64,000 bases of DNA from Echinarachnius parma (taxonomy: Eukaryota > Echinodermata > Echinoidea > Clypeasteroida > Echinarachniidae): positions 32,296 to 96,295 of the forward strand of contig JBAMJV010000840.1 in the NCBI GenBank assembly GCA_037951105.1, read 5' to 3'. Every line of letters begins with the position of its first letter. The first letter of the stretch is position 1. Both the position numbers and the translations under genes were made by a program. A model generated the notes under the pieces. The model was not told where the DNA came from. It saw nothing but the letters and a program-made list of their open reading frames with translations, and searched no databases. Below, piece by piece: positions 3,401 through 58,414 of this stretch.

Positions 3401-6400
3401 TTGCAAAATCCTAAGCATTGCTTTAACCAGCTTTCCACCTAGATTTATGGTATATGTTTGATGATGAGGGATCAACTAGCCCAGTGCTTTCATAATGGAT
3501 TGAGAATTTCTTATTTCAGCATTTGTTATCTTGAACAATAAAAACTAATTTTTCTAAAATATATGAGAAGTAATTTGTGAAAGGCATTGGGAAAACCATC
3601 TTTTGGAAATAATTTTTTATTTATTTATTTATTTTATATATCAAATTTATACAGTATACTTCGTATATATATATACTTTTTAATTGATTAATTGACTTTT
3701 TTTTGGGGGGGGGGTGGGGGAATTATTAAGAGTGCTTAAAGGGAAAGTTTCCCCATCATCTATTTATCTTTGATTATGTTCTCTACACATTAAAACATAA
3801 TTTCATGCAAATATGTCCAATGTTTGACCTCTGAACAACGGAGAAGCATCATTCAAAGTCACTCGCTGTATGGGCTAATCCCATTCATCGTGTATATAGT
3901 GTGGAGGCTGCCATTATAATTGTTCAAACCCGGATTTTGAATTGTTCGCGTTGAAATGCTACGTCAAAACCGAACAATCAAGCTCGGCCTCTTTTTTGTT
4001 AGCTCTCGTAGCTCGCAGGGTTTGTGCACAAACACAAGGCAAAACATGAGCCAACAAAAAGAGTAGTTCGGCCAATGTTGGTCAAAGTTGATTATATGTT
4101 GGGGAAACTTTCCCTTTAAGTTTAAATGGGACTTTAAATCTCTTCTTACCTGGGCAGTACAAGTTGTTTTGTTTTTGTTTAATTGTTTTCATTATTTATG
4201 TAATAATAATTAGGATCACATGTTTACCTGAATGTCAGCTTTATGGTATGCCAATTGGACTTTGGTCAAACTCTGTTTACTAGGCATAGCGCTGTTTGAC
4301 CATTATTTGCACATACAAGACTCAATTACATAATGTACGTACTGCACATTGTTGTGGTGCCCACTTCACAAACCCCTCCAAACAACTGGTGCTTGGAGAT
4401 TTAATCATGGTAGGTTAATATTTCTAATAGGAATTCCATATACAGCTTTGCATGCACATTTTCCCACAAAACAGTAGAACACTTGCACACGTTGAATTTG
4501 CTTTAAAGATTAATAAAAGTGTACATTTTACATAAAACAGATAATTTATTCAGAACACTTTATTGTTCTGAGAATTCTATCTACAAGTATGTTTTCCTTG
4601 GAGCTTAATGAGATAATCAACCCTACAAATGTTTTATATTTAGTTACAAAGGCAGCTTTATCGTTAAAATTCCTTAACTTCATTTACACCAACATCTGCA
4701 TCAGGTTTCCGAGCCATTTTATGCTTAGCTTTGCCACGGAATAAACATAAAATTGAATAGAATCATTATTTTCCTGGTGAATTTCAGCTATTTTCATGCT
4801 CTTGCAAAGTTTTTTCCAAAGTTGGAACTTCTTTTCTTGATGCTTTTCTAGTCTAGCCTACTGTCAACATATATTTTAATCGCTTTTGGATAACATTGAA
4901 AATCTGCTGAATATTGAGGGAATTTCAAGAGAAAATGTCTAGAACTTCTTTGTGCAGTAAAAGCCCTCATCCTTGTTTGCATCTTGCACTCCGGAATCTA
5001 CCATTAATGACTCATCCAAAGTTTATTGGAGGTTTGTGTGATTAAATACTTAATCCCTGCATTTAATCAAATTTCATTTCAATGTATTTAAGGTTTCTGT
5101 GATTTTTTTTTTCATTTACACCCCAGTATTGTGTTTGTCTACTCGTAGCTTGTTAATTATTACTAGTTTATCACATTTGTGTCATTTCCAGTAACCTCAT
5201 ACCTTGATTTTATGATATTTCTTGAAACAGAAATCTCACAGTGATTGTTTAAAATTGAATGGAACATGTATCGGGATAAGGTATTATTGTAGTCTGATTT
5301 TTCAGCCGAGTCTGAAAATCTCAGTTGTGTGAGAAAGCTTGTTTTTAAGAAATGAGGGTAGTAAATATGTGATGCCGTTTTGTTTTATTTTTCAAATTTG
5401 TAATAATTTTCATTGGATGATGGTTTCAGGGACCCTGAGCATCTTGCAAAAGATGGATTTAGCGCATTATGTGGGAATGTCGCACAGTCCTGGTAGATTT
5501 GTTCGGGCCTTCGTCTTTCAATACAAGGGTCTTGTGTTTGATTCCCAGCCGCGACACGTGTGTCCTTCAGCAAGACTCTTTATCCACATTTGCTGCTCTC
5601 AACCCAGGTGTAGTAAATGGGTACTTGGCAGGAATTTATTCCTTGAAATGCTTGAGCGCCCCATCATGGTAGCTCGGCTAAAGCCAAGGTAATAATGCTC
5701 CAAGCGCTTTGGGACTTCGGTGATAAAGCGCTATATAAAAATGGATATTATTATTTTAAGATCTTGATATTATTATCATTATTGTAGAAACAAACGTAAA
5801 TCTATTCAACTGGACTTACTTTTTTGCATTACATCAGTGTATCATTGTTATTGTTTTTGTTATTATGATTATAATTATCATTATTATTATTATTATCTCC
5901 ATTAAATTTTAGGGTTCAGCGATCCGTTTTGCACCCTGGGAATCGTCCCGCTGTGGAAGGAGACGAAGAAGGCTGTACGACATGACATTCTGATGGACCA
6001 CTCCAGCTTCGATGCCTTGTCCTTCACACAAATCAAGGAGAAAACACTCAACCCGATGTGGAACGAGCAATTCAGATTGTAAGTTTATTTGAATTGCATA
6101 CTGTAACAGGTTGGGGGCTTGTCCGGGAACTAAACTGACATTTTTCCCAACAAACTTTTCTTTAATGAAATACTAGACAAGTTCAATTCAAGAAGGTTAT
6201 TGAGTAGGAAGAGTTTGAGAAAGACCATGGATAGTTTCGACATGAAAGGGGACCACGCCAGGGTGGACGCCTTGTCCTTCACACAAATCAAGGAGAAAAC
6301 ACTCAACCCAATGTGGAACGAGCAATTCAGATTGTAAGTTCATTTGAATTGAATACTGTAACAGGTTGGGGGCTTGTCCGGGAACTGAACCCACTTTTTT

Positions 6401-9235
6401 AATGTATTCTTCCAAAGAATCACTGCACAGTGCAATTCAGAATAAGAATGATTCCTGTCCAAGTGAACGGAACAGCAGTGTTCTTTTCGCTGCCTAAAAA
6501 TGTTTATTTGATCTTGAATTTGACTTTCATTTTTTTCGATTTTGACTAATATATAGACTGAATTATGCAACTATAACTATATCATTTGATATTTCAACAA
6601 TATTTCTTCATCTTCAAAGCTGTACAACACGACTGTTTATTTGCAAATGTACAAACCTCGACCAGTACTCAAGTATACCTTTATAAAGTAAAATTACATA
6701 ACAAACATTGAAACTTGGCTAGAACAGAGAGCAGGATGTTTCTGCAGAGTTGTGCCAAGTTTTAGTCCAAGGGAATAAGTCGTTCATTGTTTTAACTTAA
6801 TTGATTTTTGATACCATCTTCTGTGAGATGCACAGATTATCAAAGCTAATGAATGAGTGCACTCAACTACACTTTGAAGAGCTCTTTTCTTTTTTGACCT
6901 AGCTGTTATACAGTTATGGGGGTGATTTCTGTTCCCTAAATAAAAGGCTAGTCTATGTAACATGAGTTATATATCATATTGAAGCTTAGATTCTGAACTG
7001 TCATGTCGTGCCATTAACCCGTTCACTTCAAGATTCTGAAATCCTCATAGACTTTGTACATAGCCCACCCGGTTCCTGTAAGCAACCGGTTAACACAATT
7101 TAAATTTTCCAACCTATTGGTCATTTTGCAAATTGAAAAAAAAAAAGCTGTTGAAACTTGTTATGAATTTTTTGCCTGGTTTGTTTTCTTCTTGTACTCA
7201 GTGATGTTGGAGATTTGAATAACGAACAACTGCAGGTTGAAGTCTGGTAAGTTGATCAAATGAAGTCTCACCATATTTCTATTTTATCTTCTGTCTTTGT
7301 TTATTCTTTTTGAAAACTTCTATTTCCTAAATGCTTCCCATTTCCATTTCATCTTGACTTCTTTTCAACATTGTTTAATACCTCTTCTTCCAAATTCAGT
7401 GCAGTCCTCTGAGTAGAGTATTGTACTGTTGTGTGTTGCTGTAGTGCAGTGTGCAGAACTCCAGGAGAGAGCCAGGAAAATAAACTTTTTGAATAATGTA
7501 GGTAGTAATAAAAAGTGCAAGCAAAAAACATCTTTGTTTCTTAGTTTTGGAGTAGGTTCAGTCCTACCAGCACGCTCCTAATAAAGGTGATTGATTGTAG
7601 GGGCTGATATTGTTTCACTGTTTGGAATAGTTTGCCAGTTGGATTGAGGTTGTTTCCCACCGTAGGAATATTTAGGAGAAATTGGAAGACATTGTAGATT
7701 AGATTAGAGAGTCTGTAATTGGAAATGTGCTATAAAAGAATGAATTATGATTATTGTTATATTATTATTTGATCTCTTTTTGTTTATCACGACGAGGATA
7801 CAGTAGCTCTGTCCTACACACAGTACAGAACATTGGAGAGTTGTAGTCTTCATCGAATTAAATTATACAGTTTATCTGTTCTTATTTCTTTACATGTGAA
7901 AAACATGTTCTTTTTTATGCTTTGGATCGTGATAAGGATCGCCTATGCACAAATTGAAGAACATTGGCTAGGTGCCCATTAATTAATTCAATATTTGTCT
8001 GAGATAACCTCATAATTAAACACAATTATACCATTTTTATTGCTTCAAATGTGAATAATGTGTTGTCTTTTTCTTTATCCCTAGGGATCATGACGAGGAT
8101 AGCTCTGTCATGAACACAGTGAAGAACATTGGAGAGGTTTCCGGTTTCAAGGGAATGGGAAGGTACTGACAAAATTATATTAATTATTTAAAAAATTATT
8201 TCAATAAAATATTTAGGCTATTCATATGTGACCGGCTATAGCAAAACCCTGCACTTGTCGGTAATTCATGTTTTGAAGAAATTCACATTTTTTGTTCACA
8301 TAATGTGTGTAAAGCACTAATGATTTTAAAATTGAAACAATCATATCTTCGCCAATTTTTGACCAATTTGTTAGAACAAATGATGAAATGAAAGCTTGTG
8401 ATGAGGCCTTTCTAATGGTATGAAAATCTACTTTTCAATTTTTACAGACAAGTGCAGGGTTTTGCTATAGCCGGTCACATATATAGCAAAACAGAACAGT
8501 GCAGTTCCTTTTATATTTATACAGTCACGTATATTGTAAATGTATTTTATATGTAAACATACAATATGTACAAGTCATTCTGTGAGGCTGTGACATGTGC
8601 AATTGAATTGATTTGAAATTAATTGAAGGAAATGAAACATTTTGTTCTCCAGAAATAGAAAGAATTTTAAAAACATGACTGTGTCATTTTCCAGATCATG
8701 AAACGTCTGTAGGGCCCCGTTTCTAATTGTTATAAATGTCCAATTATATTGTAATTTCCCGGTCATAAATGTCCAATTATTGTAACTACACCATGGCTGA
8801 TTGGTTGTTGGCATGGTAGTTACAGTAATTAGACTTTTACCAACGATTCAATCAGTTTTATAAAAATAGACCCCAGGTGTGAAGGGAACAGGATGGTTCT
8901 GGAAATTAATATCATTATCATTTCAAGAAAATACTCTGGCTTGTCATATTTTGCTCTTGTATTTATACAGTTTTGCCAAAGGGAAGGAGAAAATAGTATA
9001 ATATCTCTCTCCTACTGCAACTTCCATGGCAGGAAATGATTTGCTGGTCACTTGCCAGAGATCAAACAATCTAAGATGTAATCTTTCTAAGTATTAGACT
9101 TCCTTGCCAAACTCAAGGACGATCGCGCTATGACACTATTTGCACTTTTTTGCACATTATGATTTGTGATTGTGCCATTTTACTTGTGTCATTGAACACA
9201 TAAACATACATACACCTGTACACATCTAAAACCAC

Positions 9236-9302
<67 letters not shown>

Positions 9303-12300
9303 GTACATGACAAGGCACACACATAAACATGTACAACAAGAAGACACACATACAACAACACACAAACACACACACATACAACAACACACAAACACACACA
9401 CAACTCACAAACACACATACATAACGACATACACACATACATGAGGACATACACACATACAAGGCATATATTATTAAGTCTTATTTTAGTGCTGTGAATT
9501 TGGCCACTTATTATTATGAAATGTTTCCCATTTATTGGTTTAATACCTTCTTATTTGTTAATTTTGTCTGCAGGTTTTTCAAAGAGGTTGCTCAGTCGGC
9601 CAAAAAGGATGGAAAGAATCTGGATGATTTCCTTGGCTGGGTGACTATTCCCCTCAATGTGAGTTAGTGTCATTTTATACCCTTTTTTAGCCTAGATATA
9701 TATTTCCCTATAGCGTTAATACATGCAGGGCTCAACGCTAGCTATTGCCCAGGGTAAGTTAATGTCGGGCAAGTATAATTGCATAAATGGTCTAGTTTGG
9801 TTGCCTTTTCGGGCAGCTAATTAATTGTTTAACTAGGAGATAATATTGAATTTCTTACATGTAATTCTCATCTAGAAAAAAGCGGGCAACTAAAATTCTG
9901 TTTGGGCAAGTAAAAGTTGAAAATATATGATTGTATATATATGATTGTACTTGCCCGAACGGGCCATTGCAGAGAAACATTAGTATGGAGGCCCGATATC
10001 ATGATATCATCATGCATGAGGTATTTGTAAGATATTTGCTTTACACATGCATTGAGTTCTATCCTCTATGCAGGGATGAAAATTAAAGTGAGCCAAGTCA
10101 AGATGGAAGTCTCAAATATTCAGATAATGATTATTTCTGATTTGGGGAAGATTCATTTTTAACCCTATATAGCCCGGCTCTTAATCTTTAAACGTGATTA
10201 TCACTCAACCCGTTGCCTACGAGTTTGTGAAATCCCCATAGACTTTGTACACAACCCATCCGGTTCGCGTAGTCAAGGGGTTAACTTAAGTACAAAAAGT
10301 GAATTAGCGCCCTTCTCTTCTCAAAAGATGACATGTATTTTGAATTGTAAATAACAATTAATTTTGTTGTTGCTTTTTTCCCCATTTCAATAGACCATAT
10401 CAAGTAAGGGTCTTGCATGTTACTTCCCACTTCAATGTCGATCAGCCAAGTCAAAGGTCGAAGGTGAACTCAAATTGAAGCTTCAGTTGGCACTAAAGGT
10501 AAGCCATTGCAAGAGATGTACATGTATTTTCTCAAATTGATAACATTTTTATCCGGTCTGTTTTTTTATTAATTTGTAATTTAATATCTCTGATAATTTC
10601 CATCAAAATCAGACTTAGTATTAGATTGGAACTTTATACATGGTATATACATGACATATACATGTACATGTACAGGTTCCATAACATTGATTTTCTTTGC
10701 AGGAGAACACTTTTGTAGACCACTATAGGCAGGTTGGCTGTTATAGACATGTGGCTGCCAAGACAGGTGTTACTGTATATCAATCTAATAATCAAGTCTT
10801 TTAGGCAAATTATATTACATTATTGATATTTACATAAATTATTGTCTTATAATTTTGCCTCATAGAAGGAAGCCCCTAAGGCTAGTGCGGTCCACCAAAA
10901 ATAAATACCAATTCATCAAATAATCATAAATTATCAATCAATCAATCGATCGGTCGATCGATCAATCAATCAATCAATCAATTACTTTATCAATCAGACA
11001 ATAATGACAGCTATTTATGAATTGATCGGTCGATCGATCAATCAATCAATCAATCAGTTTATCAATCAGACAATAATGACAGTTATTTATGAATTGATCA
11101 GTCGATCAATCAATCAGTCAATCAATCAGACAGTAATGGTAATTAGTTTTGAATTGATTGGTTTGTAATCATCGTCTATCCCTCACAGAAAGACACTCCA
11201 AAGGCTAATATCGAGTCCCTTGCTGCTGTCCACCAGTATCTGTGGTACTGCTTTACCCATCATGAGGTGTGTGACCAGAGTATGACGTCTTGCAAGTGGG
11301 GCGGCCAGCTCTCTCCCACGGCCACTGCCATCCTACAACAGCTAGCACAGCAGCACCAGCTGCCTGAGATATACCAGCTTGCCAGGTTAGAATGGCTTAA
11401 ACTCTTTCATTGCAATGAACAAGCTTTAATAGTTTGTGAAGGTTTTAATAGTTGCCCTAGCATCTGAGTGTGTCATGAGGTGTGTGATCATAGCACGACT
11501 GCTTACAGGTAGCTTTCTCCCATGGCCACTGCCATCCTACACCAGCTATCACAACAACAGCTCACCAGGTTTGGAAAAATTAAACTCTGTCATCACTAGA
11601 AGCAAATTTAAAGGGGTATTATATCATTTGTCACACCAGTATGCATAGTCTGAGGTAACGTATTCCCAATGGATGACTGTGGCCTCTTACCTCCCCAATG
11701 CCCCCATAGCTATACCAACTGTGTTTTCCGTAATAACTAAATTCAGGGGTAAGTCGATTTGCTAATTTTGAATTAATTCCTCAATTTCAGTTTACAATTT
11801 GCATAATTTCCTTGACTAAACACACTCTATCAGTTTGCAAATGTTTTGTTTGTTGCTGTACTTGTTTTCATTTAATGTGAGTACTCGGAGGACTGCATAC
11901 AGCAAGCGTTGTGTGCTGTCCCACCTTCACCATTTCACACAAATAAATTACAAATTTATGCAATCTGAATTACCGTTACAAAGTATATTCTATATTTAAT
12001 TTTCTTTGACTATGAATAGCCCGTATATTGCCTCCTCACAGCCAGTTCCAGTGCTGTGTGCTGTTCCAGCTTGACATGAATGTCTCTCTTTTTAGTTTAT
12101 TCTTTCCAGATGAAAGTGAATTCACTTTAATAAATGAATTACGAATGTAAACAATCTGAATGACCATGACCAAGTAATACTACATATAGATTGTATATAT
12201 TTTGGAATAAAATGTTGTTCATTTTCTTTGACTCCGAGCAGTCAGTGGATTGCCTACAGCCAGCGCTGCGTGCTGCCCCACCTAGACCTGAACGTCATGT

Positions 12301-15300
12301 TCTCAATCATCACTGGCATCTGCAACCTCTGGGACAACAAGCACCTGGACAAGCAAATGGTAGGACACGGTTCCAATTTAGTTTGCATGATTTTTTTTCT
12401 AAGGATATTGTACGTGATTTGAAATATATGTTGCATTTTAAAGATTGGAATCAGTGTCTTAAACAAAACATCTTGACCCAAACATCATGTTCTCGATCAT
12501 CACTGGCATCTCCAACCTATGGGACAACAAGCACCTGGACAAGCAAATGGTAGGACACAGTTCCAATTTAGTTTGCATGATTTTTTTTCTAAGGATATTG
12601 TACGTGATTTGAAATATATGTAGCATTTTAAAGATTGGAATCAGTGTCTTAAACAAAACATCTTGACCCAAACATCATGTTCTCGATCATCACTGGCATC
12701 TCCAACCTATGGGACAACAAGCACCTGGACAAGCAAATGGTAGGACACAGTTCCAATTTAGTTTGTATGTTGTTTTTTTTTGGTTTATGGAGGATGCGCA
12801 CTGCATGATAGTTACAATTTATGAAGAAGTTACAAATTTCCTTTGTTTCATGCCAAGCTTTGTTGCTATGTGGTTGTGATTGGCCGCTGTGATTTTCTTT
12901 TTCATTGAGTATGATACTGTGTGTTCTTTATTCTGTTGCACTTACCAACATGTGGTATAATTGTGTTTTTTTTCTTCCCCCGTTTTGGTAATTTTCAGAT
13001 GTCGTACTTCAGCAAGTCTTGCGAGGAATTTGTTGACCACTCGATACGCTTGCTACAGAAACAGCATGAGGCATTCTCCTACAAGAACACAGAGGCTGTA
13101 CTGCAACTACACCTCCTCATTCGGTAAATATTAATGAAAATGAAACTTAATTCAAACATATAGGGAAACTGACCAGAAATATATTATATGAATGAAAAAG
13201 AGCAAAGAAAATGGGATTCCAATGGGATTCGTACGAGATCTCCTGATTGCTAGACCGGAGCTCTTACTAACTGAGCTATAGAAAACCCTAGTGTGGTGCT
13301 CGTCCCTGAAACCCCAATAGTTTTCATTTAGATCTTCATTATTTGTTTTACCAATGACAGAACAAATTCATAAAATTTGCATATGTTTCTTCAACAAGAT
13401 CTTAATAACACATTTTCGCACTTAACAATGTTAGTCGAGGAAACTTGTGTGATTATTTTATTAAAGACCAATTAAACAGTTCTACAATCCATGTGCATGT
13501 ACTTGTGTAATCTGTATTATTATGTATGTAATATTGAGTTTGTTTGTCATTACTTGTTTCAACGTATTTATTGCCAGGTGTTTGCTGGTGATTGAGCAGC
13601 TGAGCACGAAACATAGTTGGGGGATATTCAAGGAGAGCATCAAAAACGTCATTTCAGATGCAGTCAAGGTGAGAATTTATTAATTTCTTTTCTTTAATTA
13701 CCTCACAAACAATAGATAGTTTTTTATGAATGTTTAATGCTGACATCATTGTCAAAACATAAATTGTTGATGCGTGGGAAAAGATTTATTGTCTACAAGA
13801 GCGCAGGGTTTCAATAAAACTGTACTCTATTATAAAACCTTTTATTGAAGCTTTGCGTTTCTAAGGTAAAATTTATGACGGAGTGTCTTCTAAAACAGCA
13901 ATTGTCTTCCTTTATTATTGATTCTTCCTTATGATGCATCTGGCAGAACCTTTAATTTACAATGGGTACTCTTAGGACAAAATAAATGGACTATATTCAG
14001 TCATGTCACAATTCTTTACGAATTGAAATATTAATTGGATGTTCTCTTTTATGTATATTTTCATTCATATATATTTTTCATTGCAGAAGAGTGCCAGAGA
14101 CTGGTGCACGAAGCAGCACTTGTTATGCGAGGAAACCTATGAGGCAACACAGTCAAACTTCCTGCCAACGATTCCCTCAGTGACTCTTTTAATACAGGAA
14201 CTCTTTAAATAGGATCAACTGTAAAAAATAAACAAGTATACCATTCCCTTTCTGATTTTGTCCCTTTGCAGAAGAGTGCCCAAGACTGGTGCATGAAGCA
14301 GCACTTGTTATGCGAGGAAGCGCACGAGGCAACACGATCAAACTTCCTCGCGAATGATTCCCTGAGCGATTCCGACAATGATAACGAGGAGGAAGAGACG
14401 CAGGAGTCGCGGCGGATCAAGATCCTAGTGTCGCTGATTGAGAACATGATCCACCACGTCAAGGTCCAGATCCGTCCGCCGGCCCTGATCTACCAGAAGA
14501 CCCTGGATCTCAACCTCATCATGTTGGTGCACATGGAGATGGCAACTAAGGTATACAATCAATCTACAATTTACATTTGCGTATTAAACACAAGAATCAC
14601 AAAATGCTGCACTATTTTCCTCAGTTTTGAAGATGTTGGGAAATGATTTGTTATTATTTGTTCCCCCTTTTTTCTTCCTGCGATTGCATAGCCTATTTTA
14701 CTCCAAACTTTAGGGGTCAGCTCTGCATAATTGTGGACCCCTGTATCTGAAACAGGTGACATACAAATATATTGCCAAGTTTATATCTTTTTTTGAATAA
14801 TGAGTACCTCCACATCTGTTTAGATGAATCATAATATAAAGCAACTAACCTGAATATGATTTGTTTCTCTCTTCAAAATTTGAATTTTTGTTTGCCCAGT
14901 ATCTATAATTAAAGCTGTGTTATTCCAATTAACCATTTTATTATCAATTGAGATATTGTATTTTCTTCTTTTGTCTTTTCATATACTTTTATTGTCTTCA
15001 TTTGTCTTCTAATATTGTGTTAGGTAATGGAGGAAGCAAATGCAATGATGTCCACTGGCAGGAAACTATCGCAGGAGGAGAGCCACCATGCAGCAATAGC
15101 CCTGTTCTCACTCTACCTTGCCATCAAGGGATTCCATCGAGCAGGAGATAGAGAGTAAGATACCAGTCATATTATGGTTGATTATACAGATAAGAAAGGG
15201 ATTAGGTGAGGAGAGGTGTAGAGGGGTAAGGGTGAGGTGATGAGAGGGACGGGGAGGGAAGCGGGGGGCCTAGTGATGTCACTAAGCTATCACAAGCGGA

Positions 15301-18300
15301 GAGCCACCATGCAGCAATAGCCCTGTTCTCACTCTGCCTTGCCATTAAGGGATTCCACCGGGCCGGAGATAGAGAGTAAGAAACCGATCTTATTAGGGTT
15401 GAATATGCAGATAGAGTGAGGAAAGGAGAAGAGGAGGAGGGGGGGGGGGGGGGGGGGGGGGTAGGGTAGAGGGGGGCCTAGTGAAGTTGGAAAGGTATTG
15501 GAATTGGAGAGCCACCATGCAGCTATCGCCCTGTTCTCACTCTACCTTGCCATCAAGGGATTCCATCGGGCCGGAGATAGAGAGTAAGAAACCATTCTTA
15601 TCAGGGTTGATTATACAAATGACAAATGGATGGAGTGAGGAAGGGGGAGGGGTTAGAGTGAGGAGGGGATGGGAATATTGGTAGAATGTCGCAAGAGGAC
15701 AGCCACCATGCAGCGATAGCCCTGTTCTAGGTATTGGTTAGAGATGAATACATCGGGTACCACCTGGTGTTCAAGAAGTCTTTGGAGCAGTGATTTGGCC
15801 AGTAAGAGAGATAACACTGTGTCATATCTAGTGCTCTTTAAAAATGAAGCTAGTACAGTAACTAATGTGTTTTATCTCGTATTTGTCAAGGTATCGTTAG
15901 AGATGGGGACATGCAAGTACCACCTGGTGTTCAAGAAGTCAATGGAGCATTGGTTTGGCCAGTTTGTATAAGATACCACTGTTTTAAATCTAGTGCTCTA
16001 TAAATGGAAGCTAATAACTACTGTGTTGTTTGTTTGTTTGTCTAGTTATCGATTAGAGATGGGGACATGCAAGTACCACCTGGTTTTCAAGAAGTCTGTG
16101 GAGCAGTGGTTTGAGCTGGCTCGCCAGAAAGCCAAGGCTAGGATAGAGAAGGCAGTTGAAGTGGATGAGGTACGAGGGGAGTGTTGCATAAAGAGTTGGG
16201 ATCAATCGCGAAGTTGTGATTTTTGTAAGGGTCTTGTAATTTGATTTGTTGGGATAATGTGAAGGAAGGAAACTAATTGTATGCAAGTTTATTCCAGAAA
16301 GTAAAGTGGTGATGAGTGCAGATGAGGTCATTTCTATACTTGAAGCAGGGCTCGATGCAAGCACTTGCCTGCTTGCCCGGGGCAATTAGAAATTGGTGTT
16401 GGGCAAGGAGAATTTCATAAATTGTCTAGTTTACTTAACGGATTAGGCAACTAAATAATTGTTCAACTACAAGAGCACAATGTAATTTCATGTGTTAGTC
16501 TCATCTAGAAGTAAGAGGGCATGTACATTTTATATTAGAGCTAGTAAAATTTCCAATTGTATGATTTTACTTGCCCGAATGGGCCAGTACAGAAAAAGGT
16601 TTGTGTGGAGGCTTGCTTTAGGTGATAACTGTTAAATAATAAAAAGAAGTAATTTTGTTTTGCCAAGTGAATCTAGGCAATTGTGTGATAGCTTATGACA
16701 ACACCTTTTCAAAGTTGAATAAAGATGAAATTTACACTTCCTGAAGAATGTACCACCTGTCAATCAAATAGTCAGGAACTCTCTGAAATGTAACAACTAA
16801 GGTATTCCATCCATGAAACTTTACAAGAAGCAAGGATGAAATTCACAACTTTGGTATTCTAGCTGTGAAATGTTACAAGAGGCAAGGCTGAAATGTACAA
16901 CCTTGGTATGCCTCTTGTGAAATGTTACAAGGGCCCTTGGTGAAATTTACAAAAACATTATTTGATTGTGGTTGAAATTAACAAGGTGAAATCTACATCC
17001 TTCCTGTCAACAAGTTGGAATTTTGCCCTTTGCCCTGTTTCTCTTTTGTTCTATTATAATATTCTAAATGTATATTATTATTTTATTATTAGAATGATAT
17101 CATTATAAAGGTATATATTAACAATTTCAGTTTATTCTAATTGTAATCTTATTTGATCAACTCCATATAGGTGAGGTTAGTGGATAACATGGTGAAACAC
17201 AGCTCCTCAGCGGTAGATGCCACAACCACATTTGCCCAGGTATGAAGTTTATTTTAAATAAAGCAAAATACTGCTTAAAACTGCTTATAAACAACAACAA
17301 AAATGAAACAATCAAATGTGATTCACTAAGGAGCCTCTCGATCCTAGCAGAATGACAATAAGGTCATGAAGACTATGGACTATATAGACACATGCACACA
17401 TACGCGAAAATACATGAACATTCCCCTGATTAAGTAAAGATTATTCGCCATTGTGCTGCGTGTATTTCATATTAAATATCTCCCTGATTGATGTTTGAAA
17501 TATTCTCCTTGAATTAAACATGTGCTAACCTAACCCGCCGTACGTAGTACGGCGCCTGGCATACTGAGGTGTGTATACCGTGATGGTAACACTTTATAGG
17601 CTTTAACGGCAAACACACTTATAAAAAAAAAAACAATATCATACTTTAAATAACATATCTCGGTTCATACTTACGAATTATGTTATGCATGGGCATCAAT
17701 GATCCAAATCGTAAAATGTCTGATGCTCCATTCGTTTTATTTATACTGAAATTTACTATAAAACTGGCAAGATTACAGAAGTGACGAAAATGGTTTCCGA
17801 ATTTGTTCGCTGCATGCAATATAAGGTGATCAAAAACTTGTCGGCAATGCACCCCTGTACTACGTACCATACATGTGAGTACGGTACATACAGTCCCTGG
17901 CTTACTGTATTGTATTAGTCAACCGATCGCCCCGCGCATGCGCTATGCATTGCCAACGAGTTTTCGGTCACCTGACATTGCATGCAGCGAACAAAGACGA
18001 AGGAAATAACAGTCATCATCATCATCATCATCAATTTGAGGTAAGTTATCATTCTTTTGCAACAAATTAAATAGCAAGCAAGGTAGGTTGAAGGTTTAAT
18101 TCGTGTCTAGAACTAAAAAAAAAAATAATAATAATAGATGTAAAGTTCTTGAAACCACCCGTCGCAAAATTTCTCCAAATTTGTTAACGTCTCGTCTTCA
18201 CAGCGCCGTCCTACGGACGGCGCTGATCACAGTTATCAATTATACAGCTTTCAGTACAGTTAACAAGACTTTTATTTTATGCATTATTTTGTTATTTAGA

Positions 18301-21300
18301 TCAAAGACTTTTGGGTCAAACTGGACTGGCCGGACGCCTCTGGTGCTTATGTCTTTGTTGCCAAGGTTACAGATGTAAGTATGAGCTCGGAATAGAACAA
18401 TAAATCAGTTGATTTATTAAAGTATTGAAAGTGAATCTTGGGAGAGCCATACTTGCATATTTATCACATATCGGCAATAATCATTTATCAGAAAATTAAA
18501 CAGGCTGTACAATTTTATAATTCATTGAAAACCTCCTTTCCCAAAATTGATGCTTAAATGTTGACTCAACAAAACACCTAACTTTTTTGTCAACTCACCC
18601 CCATATCCAACAATACTCATGGTGTGATGTCATAATAGTCAAATGAGGTATTAAATATTATGGTAAATCAGTAATGAATATAGTGGATTGAACTTGACGT
18701 CATATCTACTCATTTTTAAAGAAGGGTTCTAATACTTGAAATGCAAATAGTGAGTGTGCTCTATTTCTAAACAATTATTATGTTGCCATGTTAATAATTA
18801 TAAAGGATATGTACTTCCAACTTTTACAGGACATTCGACAGGGGGCAGTTGAATATGCCAGCATCATCCACAAGAAACTGGCAGATAATCACTTCTACGA
18901 TGATCAGGGCCAGTTTGATGTCACGGATCAGCTCTGCATTGCCGTCAACAACATTGAACAGGTAATAAACTGATTTCTAATTCATTAATTAAGGAAGGAC
19001 TATTTAATAATTGATGTACAAACAGTTTAGTATAAACCAAAGATAGTTTTATCCACAAGAAACTGGAAGATAATCACTTCTATGATGACCAGGGCCAGTT
19101 TGATGTCACGGATCAGCTCTGCATTGCCGTCAACAACATTGAACAGGTAATAAACTGATTTCTAATTCATTAATTAAGGAAGGACTATTTAATAATTGAT
19201 GTACAAACAGTTTAGTATAAACCAAAGATAGTTTTATCCACAAGAAACTGGAAGATAATCACTTCTATGATGACCAGGGCCAGTTTGATGTCACGGATCA
19301 GCTCTGCATTGCCATCAATAACATTGAACAGGTTAGTTTTTAGCATCATACCTAATCTAAAGCTGGTCTCCCATGAGGGCACATTGAGAATGAAGTTTCA
19401 AATGTAAGATGCTTAATACTTTCAGAAAAAAATTTGTTACAAGCCCTTGAATCATTATCTTGCATTTATATCTTAAATATGATATTAACCCTAAAAAGAC
19501 TGGGCTATTTTGAACCTTACAAAAACTGGGGGGTGGGGGGGGGGGGGGTGCTAAAAGGGCCCCCCCCTAAGATCTCGGCAACCGAAACTCCGATTGACTC
19601 CAAATTTGGCATCGTGATAGATGTCCATAAGGTCCACAATATTGCGAAGTAAAACAAAAACAAATAATTAGAATATGCTAATTAGAGCTAATTAATTATG
19701 CAAAAATTGTATTTTTTTGTAGTTTTTGTAGTTTTCTCGGCAATCGAAACTCTGATCGACACCAAATTTGGAATGGTGATAGATGTCCATGAGGTCTACA
19801 ATATTGCATAGTTTAATTTTTGGTTTCAATTATAATATGCTAATTAGAGCTAATTAATTATGCAAAAATTTTATATTTTTTTGTATTTGTTTGCATTTTT
19901 GTTTATATTTCGTGATTCTTATCAAACAAAATTGTGTTCCTGGTGCAGTATACATGTACATGCTAAGATTATATAAATTTACCCAATCTCTGATAAAACA
20001 ACAGGATAATCATGAAAATTGATTAAGTTTTACCGTTTCTATGTTTTTTCTTTGTTTTTATCCTTTTCTTTGTTTTTCTTTGTTTTCTTTGTTTTTCTTT
20101 GTATTAGTCTCTATTATATTGTATTGTTTTATGCAAATGAGAATGCAATAAGTTTTTTCACCATGCCAAAGTGGAATACTAACATTACTTGTGAAAAGAT
20201 GGGTGTAAAACTGCAACATAAAAGGTGCATGTAAAATCTGTGTGTGTTATATGTACATGCAAGAATTAGAAAGAAAAAAAAAAAATCAAATTTTCTGTGA
20301 CACGCGATCGCAAAATGTTACAAAACACATGGATCGTTGACCCGGTGTGCGCAAATTTGGTATCAAAAGTTGCGCAAGACTCTAAGGAAAAAAGTCATGA
20401 AGTGGCACCGTAAAAAAAGCGTTGAGAAGTAATCGCGAAAATAGCGGAGGGGGGGGGGCTAAATCAGCCCCCCCCCCCCCCCCCCGTCTTTTTAGGGTTA
20501 AAGAAAAGGGGTAAAACATATGTATTCTTAAAACAAAAATGTTGCTGCTAAAAGCATTTAGAACACAATGAAGCACAGGCATTTGTAATTAACAAAATTT
20601 TCATTAAATTTTACAGGTGCGACGTTACCTTGACAGCCTACCGACACAACTGGACTACGAGTGCGTCCTTGATGGAGTATTAACTGGGAATACGGTTTTG
20701 TCGCCTCCGAGCAGTGCAACCAAACATTGCACACGATGCTCATGAGCGCTGACAAAGACATGCTTACAAATTAAGTATTGTACTAAACTATATTTCTATG
20801 AATGATTTCACAGGTGCGACGCTACCTTGACAGCCTACCAACACAACTGGACTACGAGCGTGTCCTCGATGGAGTATTATTGGAACATGGTTCCGTTGGC
20901 TCTGATCAGTGCAAACAAACGCTGCACACGATGCTCGCGAGCGCTGACGAAGACATGCTGAATGTCATTGGGCGGGTGGTCAAGCACGTTGGTCAGAAGA
21001 TGGCGCCGGACCTACGCAAGTACATAACGCCGCTCATGTCCGCCCCGCCAGAGATAGAACTGGATGAGGTACATGAGGTTCTTACATATAAATTTTTATT
21101 ATTTATAATTTTTGAATTTTCCCACTGACGAAATTCATAATAACAAGGAATTTTACCACACTAATTATGCAATTTTCTTTTAAAAATAAGTTTAATTTTA
21201 TATATATATTTTCTAGTGTACTGTATGCTAAAATGAACGTTAGCCTATAATGCAAGATGAAATACAGGCAGGAGCACTATAAAAGACATCCTCTATAGAC

Positions 21301-22114
21301 AAATCAGTGGTACAGAAAGTTTGTAAAGTGTGTTAGGACAATGTTTTCAAGCCTTGATGTGTATGATAATAAAGTAATTCCAAGATTCCAGAATTGTATG
21401 TAGTTTTCTCTTTCTGGGTTTATCATCAGTAATGTTTCTATAGAATAGAGAACTCATGATATTCAATTTTCTTTTTTATATGATTATTTTTATGTGGAAA
21501 TTTGCAGTGATTTTAGTAAACTGTGTGTGTTTTTTTGCTCAGGTTATCACCCCATTGATGGAATATCTGGACAGCAATCTCATCACACTGCACAGTTGTC
21601 TCCTCAAGGCAAACTTCCAGAGGTAAGCTGATTTAAATACAACTTTTTATAAAAAGGAAATTTGTTTTTTTTTCTTCATAAAATGGAGCTAGCTAATAGT
21701 AAAAGTGTATCAAGTGTCAACATTATTTAATCTAATCAAATCAAACATTTATATAGAGAAACTGACCAGAAATATATACATTGTAATATAAATGGAAAAG
21801 GAGCAAAGAAAATGGGATTTCTCTGTGATTCGCACTAGGATTTTTCTGTAGCTCAGTCGGTAGAGTGCCAGTCTAGCAATCCAGAGGTTTCGGGTTTGAA
21901 TCCTGGAGAAATCCCATTTTTGGTGCTCTTTTTCATTATTTTAGAACATGAATACTTAGGGCATACTCTAAAGCAATGTCTTCAACAATTCTTCCAATAC
22001 GACATACTCTATGTATTCTACAGATTATTACCGTAAACTCTGTGTATAAGACGCACTCGTGTATGAACGCACCCCCAACTTTCACAGCAATTTTTTTTAA
22101 TTTTTTTTTTAATT

Positions 22115-22145
<31 letters not shown>

Positions 22146-31741: not shown

Positions 31742-31905
31742 ACTCAGTGTGACCTTTAAATTCGATCAACTCAAAGATTTATTCATCATAAGACGTATAG
31801 TTTTGTGAATCGTGTACCAGCACAGTTATCCATTGCCATGGATAACTAATTAGTTTTAAATAATGTCAGGCAAGCCATCAATTGTGGCCTAGCGGTTGCA
31901 AACAA

Positions 31906-32010
31906 GCATGGGCGTCAATACTTACATAATACCTATTCATCAGGGGGGGATGAAGGAATAGATCATCCCCCCCTGATGAATAGGTATCAATGACAGATCT
32001 ACGCCCATGC
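31906..32010. repeat. Palindromic repeat inside the terminal-exon array
   Basis: gcatgggcgt, acctattcatcagggggg and their inverses flank a short centre. It interrupts the last decayed unit of the array. Confidence 0.85.
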
Positions 32011-32295
32011 AAACAAGGCATTTGTCCAGCTCCTGCCCACTTGCAAAAGCTCAAAGTGAAGAAAAGTTGTTTAGAACCATTACTATGTTAACAAGGAGTG
32101 TGATTCAAAATTCATCACTTCGGTAGTACATGTATATGCAATGCTCTCTTATCATCTCATTTCCCACCGTAATAACCGAAGATAGCTGTTAAGCCGATAG
32201 AATGGCAGATAAGCCAGTCAAGAATTATTGGGGAAGTACATGTAGATCAAACGGTGATATCTAGGTCGGCATCCAGACCCTGAAGAGAGTTTTAC

Positions 32296-38222: not shown

Positions 38223-38240
38223 ATTACACTACGTGTTCTA

Positions 38241-39299: not shown

Positions 39300-42200
39300 C
39301 TGTAGGAACAAGAACAAAAGAAAAAAGGGGAGGGGGTTAGATTTCTTTTAATATATGGCCTAAAAGAAAAGGGATTGGTAATAAACTTATCAACATTTGA
39401 CTGCAAAATATTGAGTGAAAGCTGTATTTCATCACTTGAAACATACGAGTGAGGGACATATATATATTGGACTTCCTAGTAAAGATGAGTTAACTGCGCC
39501 CTGAGCACCTTGAAAGAGGTGGAATTGGCGCATTAGAAGACTTCTTTATTATTATTACCACAAATAATGGTGAAACACGTCTGTCTGCAGCATTTCCCCT
39601 TAGAGTATTTAATGCTCTGAAGGATGCCTTTTTACGCTTGCTAAAAGATCATCAGAATGTATTCAACTCATCCTTAGCTACCCCTTGGTCCAATAAGGGG
39701 TCCCCTCAAGCTCAAGAATAAATTGCATTCAGTTTCAACAACATGATGAAATCAGGAAGGCCGGGAAAATAAAAGCAATTTGAACTTCGAAGTACTGTTG
39801 CACTGCAACACGGGGAAACTACAGTTCAGTAGGAAGCCCCTGACACAACTAAATGAAGTTATCCTTCCATGGGTGACCGGGAGGCTAAAACAGGAACACA
39901 CTAACTTCGTTCAGAACAGTACTGAACTAAAGATCATCAGTATGTAGCTGCCTCTAGGTCCAATAAGGGGTCCCCCAAAGGTCAAGAGCTAATTGGTACC
40001 AGCTTCAACAACAGGCTGAAATCAGGAAGGGCGGGAAGAACAAAGCAATTTGAAATGTGTACTGTTGCACTGCAACACAGTGGAAGTACAGTTCAATGTG
40101 AAGCACTCGACACAACTGATTGGAGTTATCCTTACATGGGTAGTTGGGAGGCTAAAAGAGGAACACCGTATCTTCTTTCAGAACAGTACAGAACTAAAAA
40201 CCATAAGTATGTATTCTATTCATCCTTATCTGACACTTTATCCAATAAGGGGTCCGGTCAAGGTCAAGAACAAATTGATACGGGCTTCAACAACCAGCTT
40301 AAATCAGGAAGGCCTGGGAAAACAAAAGCAACTTAAAGTACTGCTGCACTGCAACACAGGGAAAGTTCAGTTTATTTGGGAGGCACTCAACACAACTAAA
40401 TGAAGTTATCCTTCCATGGGTGACTGGGAGGCTAAAAGAGGAACACCCTAACTTCTTTCAGAACATTACAGAACTAAAGATCATCAGTATGTATTCTATT
40501 CATCCATAGCTGCCACTTTATCCAATAAGGGGTCCCCTCAAGGTCAAGAAAAAATTGTATTCAGTTTCAACAAACGGCTGAAATCAGGAAGGCAGGGAAA
40601 ACAAAAACAACTTGAAGTACTGCTGCACTGCAACACAGGAGAAGTTCAGTTTAATGGGACGCACTCAACACGGCTAAATTAAGTTATCCTTCCATGGGTG
40701 ACCAGGAGGCTAAAACAGGAACACCCTAACTTCTTTCAGAACAGTACAGAACTAAAGATCATCATCCTTAGCTGCCACTTTCAAGAACAAATTGTATTCA
40801 GTTTTAACAACATGCTGAAATCAGGAAGGGCGGGAAGAACAGAGCAATTCGAAGTGTGTACTGTGTGCACTGCAACACAGTGGAAGTACAGATCAACGAG
40901 AAGCACCAGACACAACTTAATGAAGTTATTCTTTCATGGGTGATCGGGAGGCTAAAACAGGAACACTCAAAGAAGTCAGTAAAGTCTGGAAGTAGTTTGT
41001 CATGATGCCTATGCATGCCAGATCAGTTACCTGTCCTCTCTGCTCTAACTTCTTTCAGAGCAGTACAGAGCTAACGTTTCTACTCAAAGAAGTCAGTAAA
41101 GAGTGCGAGGCACCGACCGATGGAAGTAGTTTGTCATCAAGCCTATGCATGCCTGACGATAAATCAGTTGCAAGTACTGCCTACTGGTCAGACAAGATTC
41201 CTCTAAATCCACATCTACTCTTATGTCATTTGACAAGCTCTTACGGTGAGGGCTCAACTGCTCACTAGCACATATTTAGTCCAGTCACGGCTGTGCAAGA
41301 TCAAGAAGTCCACGGATCCCATGTGCCCCCTAAGCAGAGCTACCAGCATTGAAATGCATCATTCAGGAAGATTTAGGGAAAGTTCATCAGAATCCAGGGA
41401 GATATCTATCAAATGCATACAACCTAATGACAATAATCTTTCAATAATCAGGAAGGTTGGCTATCCGATGCAGTAATCTTGGTCTATTTTCAGGAAGTCT
41501 TCTGCGAAATCAGGAAGACATGGAAGCTCTGTCTTACGGTGAGGGCTCAACTGCTCACTAGCCCATTTTTAGTCCAGTCACGGTTGTGCCAAGATCAAAA
41601 AGTCAACGGTTCCCATGTGCCCCCCGTGCAAGATTGATGTTGAGAGACTATGGAGCACTTCACAGCATCCTGGCCGAACCTACTTCAGCCACGTCAAGAT
41701 TATATTACAAAAGTCGAGGACTGTCTTCATGGATTTACAGTACGTGTATCGCAGTATAACATCAGTGATCTGTGTGTGTTTACCAGTGCTACTCTTCTAC
41801 CGCCCGATTCTAGCCTGCCATTGAGTACTTGTAAAAGTCTTTTCTCTCTTACTTTTTTTTATTCATAAAATGCATGTTTCACGATCAACCACTATCTGTC
41901 CACCACCTTGATATGACTCTTCGATTCCACACCTGTGTACGTGTATCCAGAACTGTTTAGTTTGTGCAACCCCTGGGAGCGCTGATCTCCGAAATAGCAG
42001 AGGGAGAAGAATATAAAGAAGAAGGTGGTTCCTACCTTCATGAACCTTACATCAGTTTTGAAAACAATTCTCCATTTAATTAAATTCAATTAAATAAAGG
42101 TGTATTGCACACGATTGCAGCAATAAGGCTGAATTAAACATGTTTACAATTGTTAAAAAAACGTTTACAATATGTAAATACAACTATATACATGTACTTA

Positions 42201-43324
42201 TCAGATCTTACCTTTTGTACATATTGTGGATTGACAGATATCTCCTGATCCATGCTCTTCAGTTTCTCATCCAGACTGATGCACTGCTGCATCTATGTAA
42301 ATGAGATATGTACAAATCTTATGAATATTCATGTTTTATGCAAATCCTACATTTAATAATTTCTTCTTGTTAGGATTCAATGCTTTAAATGTATATTGTG
42401 AATGCACATCAATCTCCTGATCCATGCTCTTCAGTTTCTCATCCAGACTGATGCACTGCTGCATCTATGTAAATGAGATATGTACAAATCTTATGAATAT
42501 TCATGTTCTATGCAAATCCTACATTTAATATTTCTCCTTGTTAAGACAATATGCATGTACAGTAAAACCACCTAAGGGAAGCAAGTGGCCACTGACCTCT
42601 ATAGATGGGTTCCATAACATTGTTTATCTGTGCAGTGGATCACTTTTGGTGACAACTATAGACAGGTGGCCGCTAAGACAGGTTGACTGTAAATGACGTT
42701 ACACATGCAATCATACATGTATATTTAGATTTTCCAGAGTATAACTGGTTTATGACTGAAATCAAACACGAAAGTTGCGCTCCACCTTACTTGTTGCTCA
42801 AGATGCCTCAGGACTCCCGGGTTGTCGTACATCTCTAGGTTGTCATGGAAACGGACCATTCCATTCTGATTGGATTAAGTAAATCCTCATGTAATTAAGA
42901 AATAATAAAGTACAAATCTGAAAATGCCACAAAACTCCCACATGAATTGATGATTAACCAACTAAAACAAGATGTGAGAAAGTTGATGCACTCAAAACTT
43001 ACTTGTTGCTCAAGATGCTTCAGAACGCCCGGGTTGTCGTACTTCTCCGGGTTGTCATGGAAATGGACCATTCCATTCTGTTTGGATTAGGTAAATCCTC
43101 ATGTAATTGGAAATAAAGCACAAATCTGAACATGCCATAACATTTCCAAATGATTGGATGATTAACCAAATGAAACAAGATGAGAGAAAGTTGATGCACT
43201 CAAAACTTACTTGTTGCTCAAGATGCCTCAGGACTCCCGGGTTGTCGTACTTCTCTGGGCTGTCATGGAAATGGACCATTCCATTCTGTTTGCTTATCGT
43301 CGCATGGATCTCACCATCCTGAAT
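39246..43324 (-). CDS. COPS3: COP9 signalosome subunit 3, C-terminal exons
   Basis: Three minus-strand exons (43,324-43,211; 42,292-42,212; 39,299-39,246), all phase 0, encode the last 82 residues of CSN3, a PCI-domain subunit of the COP9 signalosome, which deneddylates cullins. Matches to the family: NGMVHFHDSPEKYDNP, then CISLDEKLKSMDQEI and NPQYVQK, then a 17-residue tail starting SMG, the same length as in human. The rest of the gene should lie at higher coordinates, but no further exon was recognised up to 64,000. Two of the three exons have partial local duplicates. Confidence 0.88.
39485..39556 (+). mobile_element. Diverged SINE tail fragment
   Basis: gccctgagcaccttgaaag, ggcgcattagaaga and (ATT)n, more distant from the other tails. 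Confidence 0.5.
39640..41090. repeat. About 280-bp satellite in the last COPS3 intron
   Basis: At least four full units and a shortened fifth, marked by tccaataaggggtcc at 39,689, 39,959, 40,241 and 40,521. Shared words include gaaatcaggaaggc, actgcaacacag, atgaagttatccttcc and acttctttcagaacag. A related short piece recurs at 41,045-41,090. No coding potential recognised. Confidence 0.9.
41225..41640. repeat. About 290-bp direct duplication
   Basis: The stretch cttacggtgagggctcaac through catgtgccccc occurs at about 41,237-41,330 and again at 41,533-41,625. Not recognised as a gene. Confidence 0.8.
42212..42292 (-). CDS. COPS3: COPS3 exon, CISLDEKLKSMDQEI
   Basis: 81 nt, phase 0-0, acceptor acatag and donor gtaaga. 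Encodes MQQCISLDEKLKSMDQEI and VNPQYVQK, matching the C-terminal helix of CSN3. Confidence 0.9.
42411..42464 (-). pseudogene. Partial duplicate of COPS3 CISLDEKLK exon
   Basis: Identical for 18 codons, with acceptor and upstream intron also copied, at a 172-bp offset from the functional exon. It then diverges after QEI and has no donor at the expected place. Confidence 0.88.
42558..42694. repeat. Uninterrupted copy of the gtggccactgtagacagg repeat
   Basis: Runs tacagtaaaacc to aagacaggttgactgta. It supplies the empty-site comparison for the MITE at 921-1,238. Confidence 0.75.
42791..43077 (-). repeat. Two partial copies of COPS3 NGMVHFHD exon
   Basis: Copies at 42,791-42,865 and 43,003-43,077, spaced 212 and 208 bp from each other and from the functional exon. 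Each keeps the donor and starts at NGMV right after a caatcag or caaacag word that can act as an AG acceptor in phase 0. The first 13 codons are absent. Confidence 0.88.
43211..43324 (-). CDS. COPS3: COPS3 exon, IQDGEIHATISKQNGMVHFHD
   Basis: 114 nt, phase 0-0, acceptor tgtgtag and donor gtaagt on the minus strand. Encodes DGEIHATISKQNGMVHFHD through HLEQQ, the end of the PCI domain and following helix. Confidence 0.9.
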
Positions 43325-46674: not shown

Positions 46675-46867
46675 TAGAATTTGATAATGGATTATGTTAT
46701 GTAGTGTACATACAATAACCAGCATTAATTGACTTATCCTCTGAAGTGTATTTGTGTGAGTGTGTCTAGTGTATCTCTCATTTGATGTCCTAAACTCTCA
46801 TTTGATGTCCTAAACTTTGTGAAAATTTGAATTTGTACAAGGATAATCGCAGTGTTTGATGAAGACA

Positions 46868-47216
46868 ATACAAAGCTAGAAGCCGCCATGGAGAGGAGCA
46901 AGAAGAAGCTTAGCAAGCTCATCAAGCGCAATGTGTCGGCCCTTCATGACATCCAGGTGACCATTGACAGATTGATGTTCACTAAACTTTGTTACAATTT
47001 TGATTCAAAGAAGTATAGATAAACGTGCAAATATGAAGCTAGAAGCCGCCATGGAGAGGAGCAAGAATAAGCTTAGCGAGCTCATCGAGCGCAATGTGTC
47101 GGCCCTTCAAGACATCCAGGTGACCATTGAGAGCAAGTTGGCAGAGCTTCAGAAGCCGCCGACAACGATCGATGCTCACGACGAGAAGATCATACTTTAT
47201 ATAATTTCCTCGCTCT
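46868..47216 (+). CDS. Unrecognised coiled-coil segment, two tandem copies (possible exon)
   Basis: Two copies 163 bp apart encode KLEAAMERSKKKLSKLIKR and KLEAAMERSKNKLSELIER followed by NVSALQDIQVTI, a heptad-like amphipathic helix. The second continues ESKLAELQKPP to a stop at 47,216. In both, CAG|gtgacc after DIQ could be a donor, and agataatcgcag before the first could be an acceptor. Amino-acid conservation between copies suggests real coding. Family not recognised, and whether it belongs to the membrane-protein gene that starts 50 bp later is unknown. Confidence 0.45.
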
Positions 47217-47264
47217 AATTTCTCCTCTCAATTCAAACTTGTTATTTCATACAGAGCCTTCAAA

Positions 47265-58414: not shown

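What the first reader, a model, noticed from the sequence alone, without database searches (positions are those of the whole stretch)
6011..57870. Partial-exon tandem duplication as a locus-wide process in three unrelated genes
About fourteen clusters contain local copies of part of an exon plus adjoining intron: BAIAP3 (near 6.3, 7.8, 11.5, 11.9-12.1, 12.3-12.7, 14.1, 15.3-16.0, 19.0-19.3, 20.6, 26.9, 29-32 kb), COPS3 (42.4, 42.8-43.1 kb), the coiled-coil segment (46.9 kb) and the FN3 gene (48-58 kb). Ages range from near-identical to heavily decayed. Introns of the same size with no exon inside show far fewer such direct repeats, so exon-bearing pieces look over-represented. This suggests a continuing mechanism, or ascertainment bias because coding copies are easier to recognise.
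Basis: partly seen in the sequence, partly recalled or inferred. Interest (0 to 1): 0.78.

Follow-up and report, generated by a model that had tools for sequence, protein, structure and literature searches.

The report
Exon-edge tandem duplications in sea urchin
In this sea-urchin-like genome, short pieces of DNA that straddle the edge of an exon have repeatedly been copied side by side, leaving strings of broken exon halves in the introns; in the genes examined exons are hit far more often than introns, for a reason that is not yet known.

Summary
The window, from an echinoid-like 1.2-Gb assembly, holds a BAIAP3/UNC13D-like gene. In its span 12 of 16 hand-listed local duplication clusters contain part of an exon (3.2 expected; 10 of 14 with touching clusters merged, 2.9 expected). 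Both COPS3 exons present also have copies. The FN3 block is a different, larger duplication. Local duplication is general: 57 clusters in 195 kb sampled elsewhere. Exon bias recurs in MAN1/LEMD3, 4 of 4 clusters at offsets up to 700 bp; a REST-like gene and four or five kinesin loci give further cases. In BAIAP3 26% of exon bases but 2.8% of other bases lie in duplications of >=80% identity; in MAN1 8.8% and 0%. Simulated ascertainment lifts the exonic share only from about 0.21 to 0.26-0.29. All 60 exon copies counted are direct; 56 carry one end of the exon and lie on that side, four are internal, none is whole: tandem duplication across one exon edge. Two arrays have chimeric middle copies, a mark of homology-driven expansion. 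The cause of the bias is open; a mutational hot spot at exons is my preferred, unproven reading.

The parts
369..28949 (+). BAIAP3/UNC13D-like gene, 27 coding exons mapped; the first mapped residue is about 95, so the 5' end was not found
   Evidence: tblastn with P0001, P0002 (Diadema antillarum) and P0003 (Lytechinus pictus)
5995..6400 (+). exon 5912-6079: its right part plus intron copied downstream, 151 bp, 92%
7786..8138 (+). exon 8086-8166: decayed upstream copies of its left part, 72-80%
11260..11559 (+). exon 11186-11386: decayed downstream copy of an internal part, 76%
11865..12283 (+). exon 12237-12362: decayed upstream fragments, 76-78%
12279..12778 (+). exon 12237-12362: 190-bp unit x2.6; the middle copy is a single-switch chimera of the outer two
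14081..14372 (+). exon 14266-14553: upstream copy starting at the acceptor, 86%
15063..15728 (+). exon 15024-15155: three downstream copies, about 210-bp units, 76-92%
15726..16113 (+). exon 16044-16175: two upstream copies, about 160-bp unit, 80-84%
18866..19333 (+). exon 18818-18964: 185-bp unit x2.5, 95-98%; middle copy a single-switch chimera; the last copy diverges just after the donor GT
20583..20959 (+). exon 20805-21071: upstream copy, 13-bp filler between copies, 83%
26836..27070 (+). exon 26999-27133: upstream copy of its left part, 84%
28868..32237 (+). last coding exon 28863-28949: array with 10 downstream copies of the C-terminal end, stop and following DNA, about 170-260-bp units
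42221..42546 (-). COPS3 exon 42209-42292: copy of one end, 93.5%, 17-bp filler
42786..43292 (-). COPS3 exon 43206-43324: about 210-bp unit x2.4, 90-94%; the outermost copy diverges just after GTAAG
46867..47133 (+). coiled-coil-like segment duplicated, 104 bp, 93%; gene not verified
19573..19900 (.). intronic tandem duplication with no mapped exon (counter-example)
10941..11162 (.). ATCA-rich tandem repeat in an intron (counter-example, dropped from the 14)
39641..40966 (.). 280-bp tandem array between the genes, no exon recognised (background)

Best explanation
Short tandem duplications (offsets mostly under 300 bp) arise throughout this echinoid-like genome and occur unusually often at exons. 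In most exonic cases one breakpoint lies inside the exon and the other in the adjoining intron. The gene keeps one complete exon, so splicing can stay correct, and the spare half exon, with at most one splice site, drifts in the intron. Later homology between the exon and its half copy lets the unit multiply, by unequal crossing over or slippage. Shown: the tandem topology, the exon bias in BAIAP3 beyond simulated ascertainment, a weaker but matching result in MAN1, further cases in a REST-like gene and kinesin genes, and single-switch chimeras at two arrays. Inferred: purifying selection against whole-exon duplication, and a mutational preference for exons, perhaps because nucleosome-sized exon DNA is excised, re-replicated or re-joined more often, as reported for microDNA in mammals.
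For: BAIAP3: 12 of 16 clusters exonic, 3.24 expected, P 3.3e-6; 12 of 14 without the ATCA repeat and a dispersed-repeat pair, P 2.5e-7; segments enlarged by 100 bp, P 2.9e-4 and 2.8e-5. Merging touching clusters: 10 of 14, P 6.3e-5 (2.1e-3 enlarged); 10 of 12, P 6.8e-6 (2.9e-4 enlarged). MAN1: 4 of 4 clusters in the mapped span at offsets 80-700 bp. Bases in >=80% duplications: exon 869/3324 against other 621/21848 in BAIAP3; 225/2571 against 0/10523 in MAN1; the intronic parts of exon-copy clusters are left out of the second figures. Ascertainment simulation: exonic share 0.26-0.29 (BAIAP3) and 0.33-0.38 (MAN1); P for 12 of 14 is 3.9e-6 to 1.7e-5, for 4 of 4 is 0.012-0.021. All 60 exon copies direct; 45 right-end copies lie to the right, 11 left-end copies to the left, 4 are internal, none whole. 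Chimeras: within the stretch shared by all three copies, 5 of 5 variable sites at 18866 (3 then 2) and 12 of 12 at 12279 (9 then 3) fit one switch. REST-like gene. Kinesin: 5 overlapping pairs among 134 matches, all confirmed in DNA.
Against: The BAIAP3 test is post hoc, on clusters listed by hand, some weak (11865, 7786). With all 16 or merged clusters the simulated null gives P 4.5e-5 to 1.2e-3. MAN1 is not fully blind: one of its clusters (7652-8096) was already tagged when I chose to extend it; the three in DNA fetched later give P 0.035-0.055, and adding an intronic pair at offset 909 (76%), beyond the 700-bp limit, gives 4 of 5, P 0.043-0.073. Only these two genes were scored; the REST-like locus has a cluster at 13333-14034 touching no mapped exon and one at 8555-8729 just beyond the exons. 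The kinesins show cases, not bias, because only copies still recognisable as protein could be listed. DNA without mapped exons also has many duplications (1.5-7.7% of bases at >=80%). Four internal copies and the L030 kinesin copy do not show the simple topology.
Confidence: 0.65

Rival explanations
1. Duplication strikes at random; exonic copies are only seen longer because the functional exon hardly changes and cannot be deleted.
For: In several older exonic pairs most of the aligned length is exon (11260, 14081, 26836). In the simulation conservation raised detection from 0.46-0.47 for intronic to 0.62-0.77 for exonic units at the lower divergence setting.
Against: The simulated effect moves the exonic share only from about 0.21 to 0.26-0.29 in BAIAP3; against it 12 of 16 has P 4.7e-5 to 1.9e-4 and 10 of 14 merged P 4.1e-4 to 1.2e-3. 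Young clusters are mostly exonic too: 4 of 5 that I picked at >=89% identity, P 0.008, or 0.036 enlarged. Loss by large deletion was not simulated and could add to the effect.
Confidence: 0.25
2. Base composition: duplications favour GC-rich DNA and exons are merely GC-rich.
For: Mapped exons are 49.5% GC against 36.7% for the window. Duplicated units outside the window are 2.3 points richer in GC than their flanks.
Against: That excess is not significant (57 clusters, P 0.089) and is small beside a roughly nine-fold difference between exon and intron bases in BAIAP3.
Confidence: 0.15
3. Assembly artefact: unmerged haplotypes placed in tandem.
For: The assembly seems to hold some near-allelic contig pairs.
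Against: The window has no N; copies number up to 25 (MAN1) and pairs diverge by up to 28%; copies follow splice topology; middle copies are chimeric.
Confidence: 0.04
4. Functional alternative or mutually exclusive exons.
For: Some copies keep an open frame and one splice site (18866 cluster).
Against: No whole-exon copy among 60; several copies carry stops or frameshifts.
Confidence: 0.04
5. Exon fragments carried by mobile elements or captured at breaks.
For: Many clusters have 13-200-bp spacers between the copies.
Against: All 60 copies are direct and beside their exon. Of 17 spacers, 9 have no other match in the window and 210 kb fetched by then, 6 match within their own cluster (for one, 4 of 11 hits were printed), and 2 also have short matches elsewhere.
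Confidence: 0.03

Closest known systems
Tandem exon duplication (Ivanov and Pervouchine, PMC9013439; passages and section 5 read)
   Same: Extra copies of exon sequence inside the same gene, made by local duplication
   Different: That paper reports about 2% (human), 0.08% (fly) and 0.06% (worm) of exonic bases with a >=80% homologue; here 27.6% in BAIAP3 and 8.8% in MAN1 (other software, two genes only). Copies here are parts of exons, not usable exons
Duplication of an exon with part of the adjacent intron, proposed for mutually exclusive exons (PMC6071210; passages read)
   Same: The duplicated unit spans exon and adjoining intron
   Different: There whole exons become alternatives; none of the 60 copies here is a whole exon
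Tandem genomic duplication giving new introns (PMC4974935; search listing only)
   Same: Short tandem duplication in a gene
   Different: No sign of a new intron here; the spare copy lies inside an existing intron
microDNA (small circular DNA; passages of PMC6511871)
   Same: Short size class and exon preference (4-10 fold reported there)
   Different: A product outside the chromosome, peaking at 200-400 bp; any link to these duplications is inference
Minisatellites (recalled)
   Same: Expanded arrays such as MAN1 58-65 bp x about 25 and BAIAP3 28.9-32.2 kb
   Different: Units contain an exon edge, and most exonic clusters have only 2-3 copies

Membership tests
Local tandem duplication | Copies direct and nearby | tested here: met
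   60 of 60 exon copies direct, within 3.5 kb
Local tandem duplication | The copied exon end lies on the same side as the copy | tested here: met
   56 of 60; the other four are internal to the exon
Mutually exclusive exons | Each copy complete with both splice sites | tested here: not met
   0 of 60 copies span the whole exon
Mutually exclusive exons | Copies spliced into mRNA | not testable with these tools
   No RNA data
Homology-expanded array (unequal crossing over or slippage) | Chimeric middle copy | tested here: met
   18866: 5 of 5, 12279: 12 of 12 variable sites in the shared stretch; the COPS3 cluster only roughly, with private changes
Dispersed mobile element (introner or similar) | A shared element present at many sites | tested here: not met
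   15 of 17 spacers show no match outside their own cluster among printed hits, in the window and 210 kb; the whole genome was not searched
Reciprocal of microDNA excision | Circles from the same exons in the germ line | not testable with these tools
   Needs circle sequencing

The most novel reading that the evidence does not exclude
Exons, or exon edges, are germ-line hot spots for nucleosome-sized tandem duplication in this lineage, roughly ten-fold above introns, through the same process that throws off exon-derived microDNA; half-exon copies are the chromosomal scar of that process.
Probability: 0.3. Interest if true: 0.85.

Novelty: new variant of a known kind. Interest (0 to 1): 0.6.

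Why it matters
If exons really attract short tandem duplication, mutation is not blind to gene structure at this scale. That bears on how extra exons, alternative exons and new introns begin, and on why some genomes may gain them faster. In the two genes scored, the share of exon bases with an extra copy is above the published figures for human, fly and worm. It also warns that exon-by-exon homology searches in such genomes will return false exons beside true ones.

Tried and rejected
Rfam search: no match at the gathering score. Pfam on the FN3 and coiled-coil pieces: nothing above cut-off. A codon-usage exon finder trained on BAIAP3 touched 19 of its own 27 exons at score 7 or more and returned many repeats elsewhere, so it served only to find genes. 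C20:200-240 kb showed no recognisable gene; C200:1-20 kb gave no usable one. The ATCA repeat and a dispersed-repeat pair were dropped for the 12 of 14 count; counts with both are given. On recheck I replaced a chimera count that had included bases beyond the shared stretch, added the merged-cluster counts, and lowered the main confidence from 0.7 to 0.65 and raised the ascertainment rival from 0.2 to 0.25 because MAN1 was not fully blind. Search for the other BAIAP3 haplotype: the DNA query was swamped by a 710-bp repeat and the protein query did not complete. Literature searches (listings with abstract starts) showed nothing describing an exon-edge duplication bias; most subscription papers are not held.

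Full report
What the window is. A joined peptide of BAIAP3-like exons found 13 proteins; the two best cover the whole query at 54-55% identity, one unnamed and one from Diadema antillarum, and Lytechinus pictus and Strongylocentrotus purpuratus are also listed. tblastn with three of them mapped 27 coding exons on the + strand from 369 to 28949. I infer an echinoid; the species is not given. The window is G000:C839:32296-96295 of an assembly of 1,200,326,526 bases in 14,790 contigs. Of COPS3 only residues 342-406, two exons on the - strand, were found.

The duplications. Self-comparison found 92 local direct HSPs at E<=1e-6 with offset under 5 kb. A permissive run found 64 HSPs with offset 40-700 bp; five first-order shuffles gave at most two each, the best 31.9 bits. 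In the BAIAP3 span I compiled 16 clusters from these by hand; 12 contain at least 20 bp of exon. The four that do not are at 1667, 10941 (ATCA repeat), 19573 and 27610 (a dispersed-repeat pair). Uniform placement of the same segment lengths in the collapsed gene gives 3.24 expected of 16 (P 3.3e-6); without the ATCA repeat and the dispersed pair, 2.85 of 14 (P 2.5e-7). Enlarging each segment by 100 bp gives P 2.9e-4 and 2.8e-5. Five clusters that I picked as at least 89% identical: 4 exonic, P 0.008, or 0.036 enlarged. If clusters that touch are merged, 10 of 14 are exonic, 2.93 expected, P 6.3e-5, or 2.1e-3 enlarged. All this is post hoc.

Anatomy. 29 exon copies in the window and 31 in MAN1 lie within 3.5 kb of their exon, all direct. 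Of the 60, 45 carry the exon's right end and lie to its right, 11 carry its left end and lie to its left, four are internal, and none is whole (left and right on the + strand; arrays count once per copy, so 25 come from one MAN1 array and 10 from the last BAIAP3 exon). That is what tandem duplication across one exon edge gives when one whole exon must remain. Some copies abut; others have fillers of 13-200 bp, mostly without match in the fetched DNA beyond their own cluster. At 18866-19333 and 12279-12778 the middle copy matches the last copy up to one point and the first copy after it: 5 of 5 and 12 of 12 variable sites within the stretch that all three share, and the DNA beyond that stretch follows the first copy too. 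This points to unequal crossing over or slippage between the exon and an older half copy. The COPS3 cluster shows the pattern only roughly, with private changes.

Is it genome-wide? I took twenty-one 10-kb stretches from contigs chosen by number, twenty of them contig starts. L017, about three quarters satellite, was left out; in the other 20, 195 kb without N, 57 clusters with offsets of 80-700 bp were found (0.29 per kb, 19 of 20 stretches), against 26 in the 64-kb window (0.41 per kb). Median offsets were 163 and 203.5 bp. One of the 57 is the MAN1 cluster below. Shared repeats of up to 97.6% identity fit the same genome, and one search places the window in it. Local duplication is therefore not a property of this locus.

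Does the exon bias recur? One contig start held a LEM-domain gene. I extended it because the gene was recognisable, but one of its duplications was already tagged in that listing. Fetching 20 kb more and finding homologues mapped nine MAN1 exons. All four duplication clusters in the mapped span with offsets of 80-700 bp contain part of an exon, including an array of about 25 units of 58-65 bp starting 8 bases after the exon of 10390-10521. One intronic pair at offset 909 (76%) lies beyond that limit. A REST-like zinc-finger gene on C6 has three further copies of the acceptor side of one exon; that exon's start is my reading of the sequence. A cluster nearby (13333-14034) touches no mapped exon. 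In base counts at >=80% identity and offsets up to 1000 bp, exon bases in local duplications are 869/3324 (BAIAP3) and 225/2571 (MAN1); other bases outside exon-copy clusters are 621/21848 and 0/10523. At >=70% they are 1030/3324, 339/2571, 825/21848 and 141/10523. Stretches without mapped exons run from 1.5% (C20) to 7.7% (window 33-41.9 kb) at >=80%, and 19 other stretches have 7.3%. A kinesin-motor search listed 134 matches. By my reading of the list, five adjacent pairs overlap in the profile by 30 positions or more; all five were confirmed in DNA, the best pair of each at 83-93%. Two of the five contigs may be allelic, so they are four or five independent cases. No intron control was possible there.

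Is it ascertainment? I simulated uniform tandem duplication in the collapsed genes, rejecting units that hold a whole exon, with exon sites of the functional copy slowed or frozen, the other copy free, indels, and the same score cut-off. Detected units were exonic in 0.26-0.29 (BAIAP3) and 0.33-0.38 (MAN1) of cases. 12 of 14 then has P 3.9e-6 to 1.7e-5 and 4 of 4 has P 0.012-0.021. Stricter counts: 12 of 16, P 4.7e-5 to 1.9e-4; 10 of 14 merged, 4.1e-4 to 1.2e-3; the three MAN1 clusters fetched later, 0.035-0.055; 4 of 5 with the far pair, 0.043-0.073. Large deletions were not modelled. GC alone is a weak candidate: duplicated units outside the window are 2.3 points richer in GC than their flanks, P 0.089, n 57.

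Is it continuing? Identities run from 98% to about 72%. Two kinesin contigs (L030, L031) align at 96.8% over 696 bp, 95% over 161, 90% over 110 and 80% over 200. In L030 a 157-bp exon fragment, 89% identical, sits 266 bp upstream of the stretch it copies; at that place L031 has 188 bases with no blastn match to it. They may be alleles or recent paralogues. The fragment is more diverged from its exon than the two contigs are over most of their length, so loss on one side is as likely as gain on the other.

What is known. Section 5 of PMC9013439 gives about 2%, 0.08% and 0.06% of exonic bases with a >=80% homologue in the same gene for human, fly and worm. With blastn I get 27.6% (916/3324) for BAIAP3 and 8.8% (225/2571) for MAN1. 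Passages of PMC6071210 propose duplication of an exon with adjoining intron in the origin of mutually exclusive exons. [quoted passage not shown] I saw no report of an exon-edge bias in the searches listed under Tried and rejected.

Verdict. Real, found across the genome sample, ordinary in mechanism (short tandem duplication plus homology-driven expansion), but with an exon bias larger than I can explain away, resting mainly on one gene and supported by a second. The cause is open.

Noticed in passing
window 17526-18236: Repeat of about 710 bp; 39 copies of 635-732 bp at 94-98% were listed elsewhere in the assembly, a lower bound.
   Followed up: no
window 59929-60824: Nearly the whole stretch matches L001 6834-7732 in both orientations (97.6% inverted, 81.6% direct), as a long palindromic element would.
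   Followed up: no
L022 471-2127 (G000:C9:10471-12127): MAN1 exon end expanded to about 25 tandem units of 58-65 bp, starting just after the exon.
   Followed up: partly
window 42209-43324: COPS3 residues 1-341 were not found in the window with a recalled human protein as query; a 3' fragment, or a gene with distant upstream exons.
   Followed up: partly
window 48182-57870: FN3-like segment present in diverged pieces (48.2, 50.1, 57.1 kb) with direct and inverted repeats about 2-9 kb apart.
   Followed up: partly
L030 and L031 (G000:C10331, C4220): Closely similar kinesin loci that differ by presence of an exon fragment; the assembly may hold some haplotype pairs.
   Followed up: partly
window 7014, 10207, 27629, 27984, 38241: Short dispersed repeat family of about 80 bp, 80-86% identical (the 38241 copy 61-66%).
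   Followed up: no
window 39641-40966: Tandem array of about 280-bp units between BAIAP3 and COPS3, no exon recognised.
   Followed up: no
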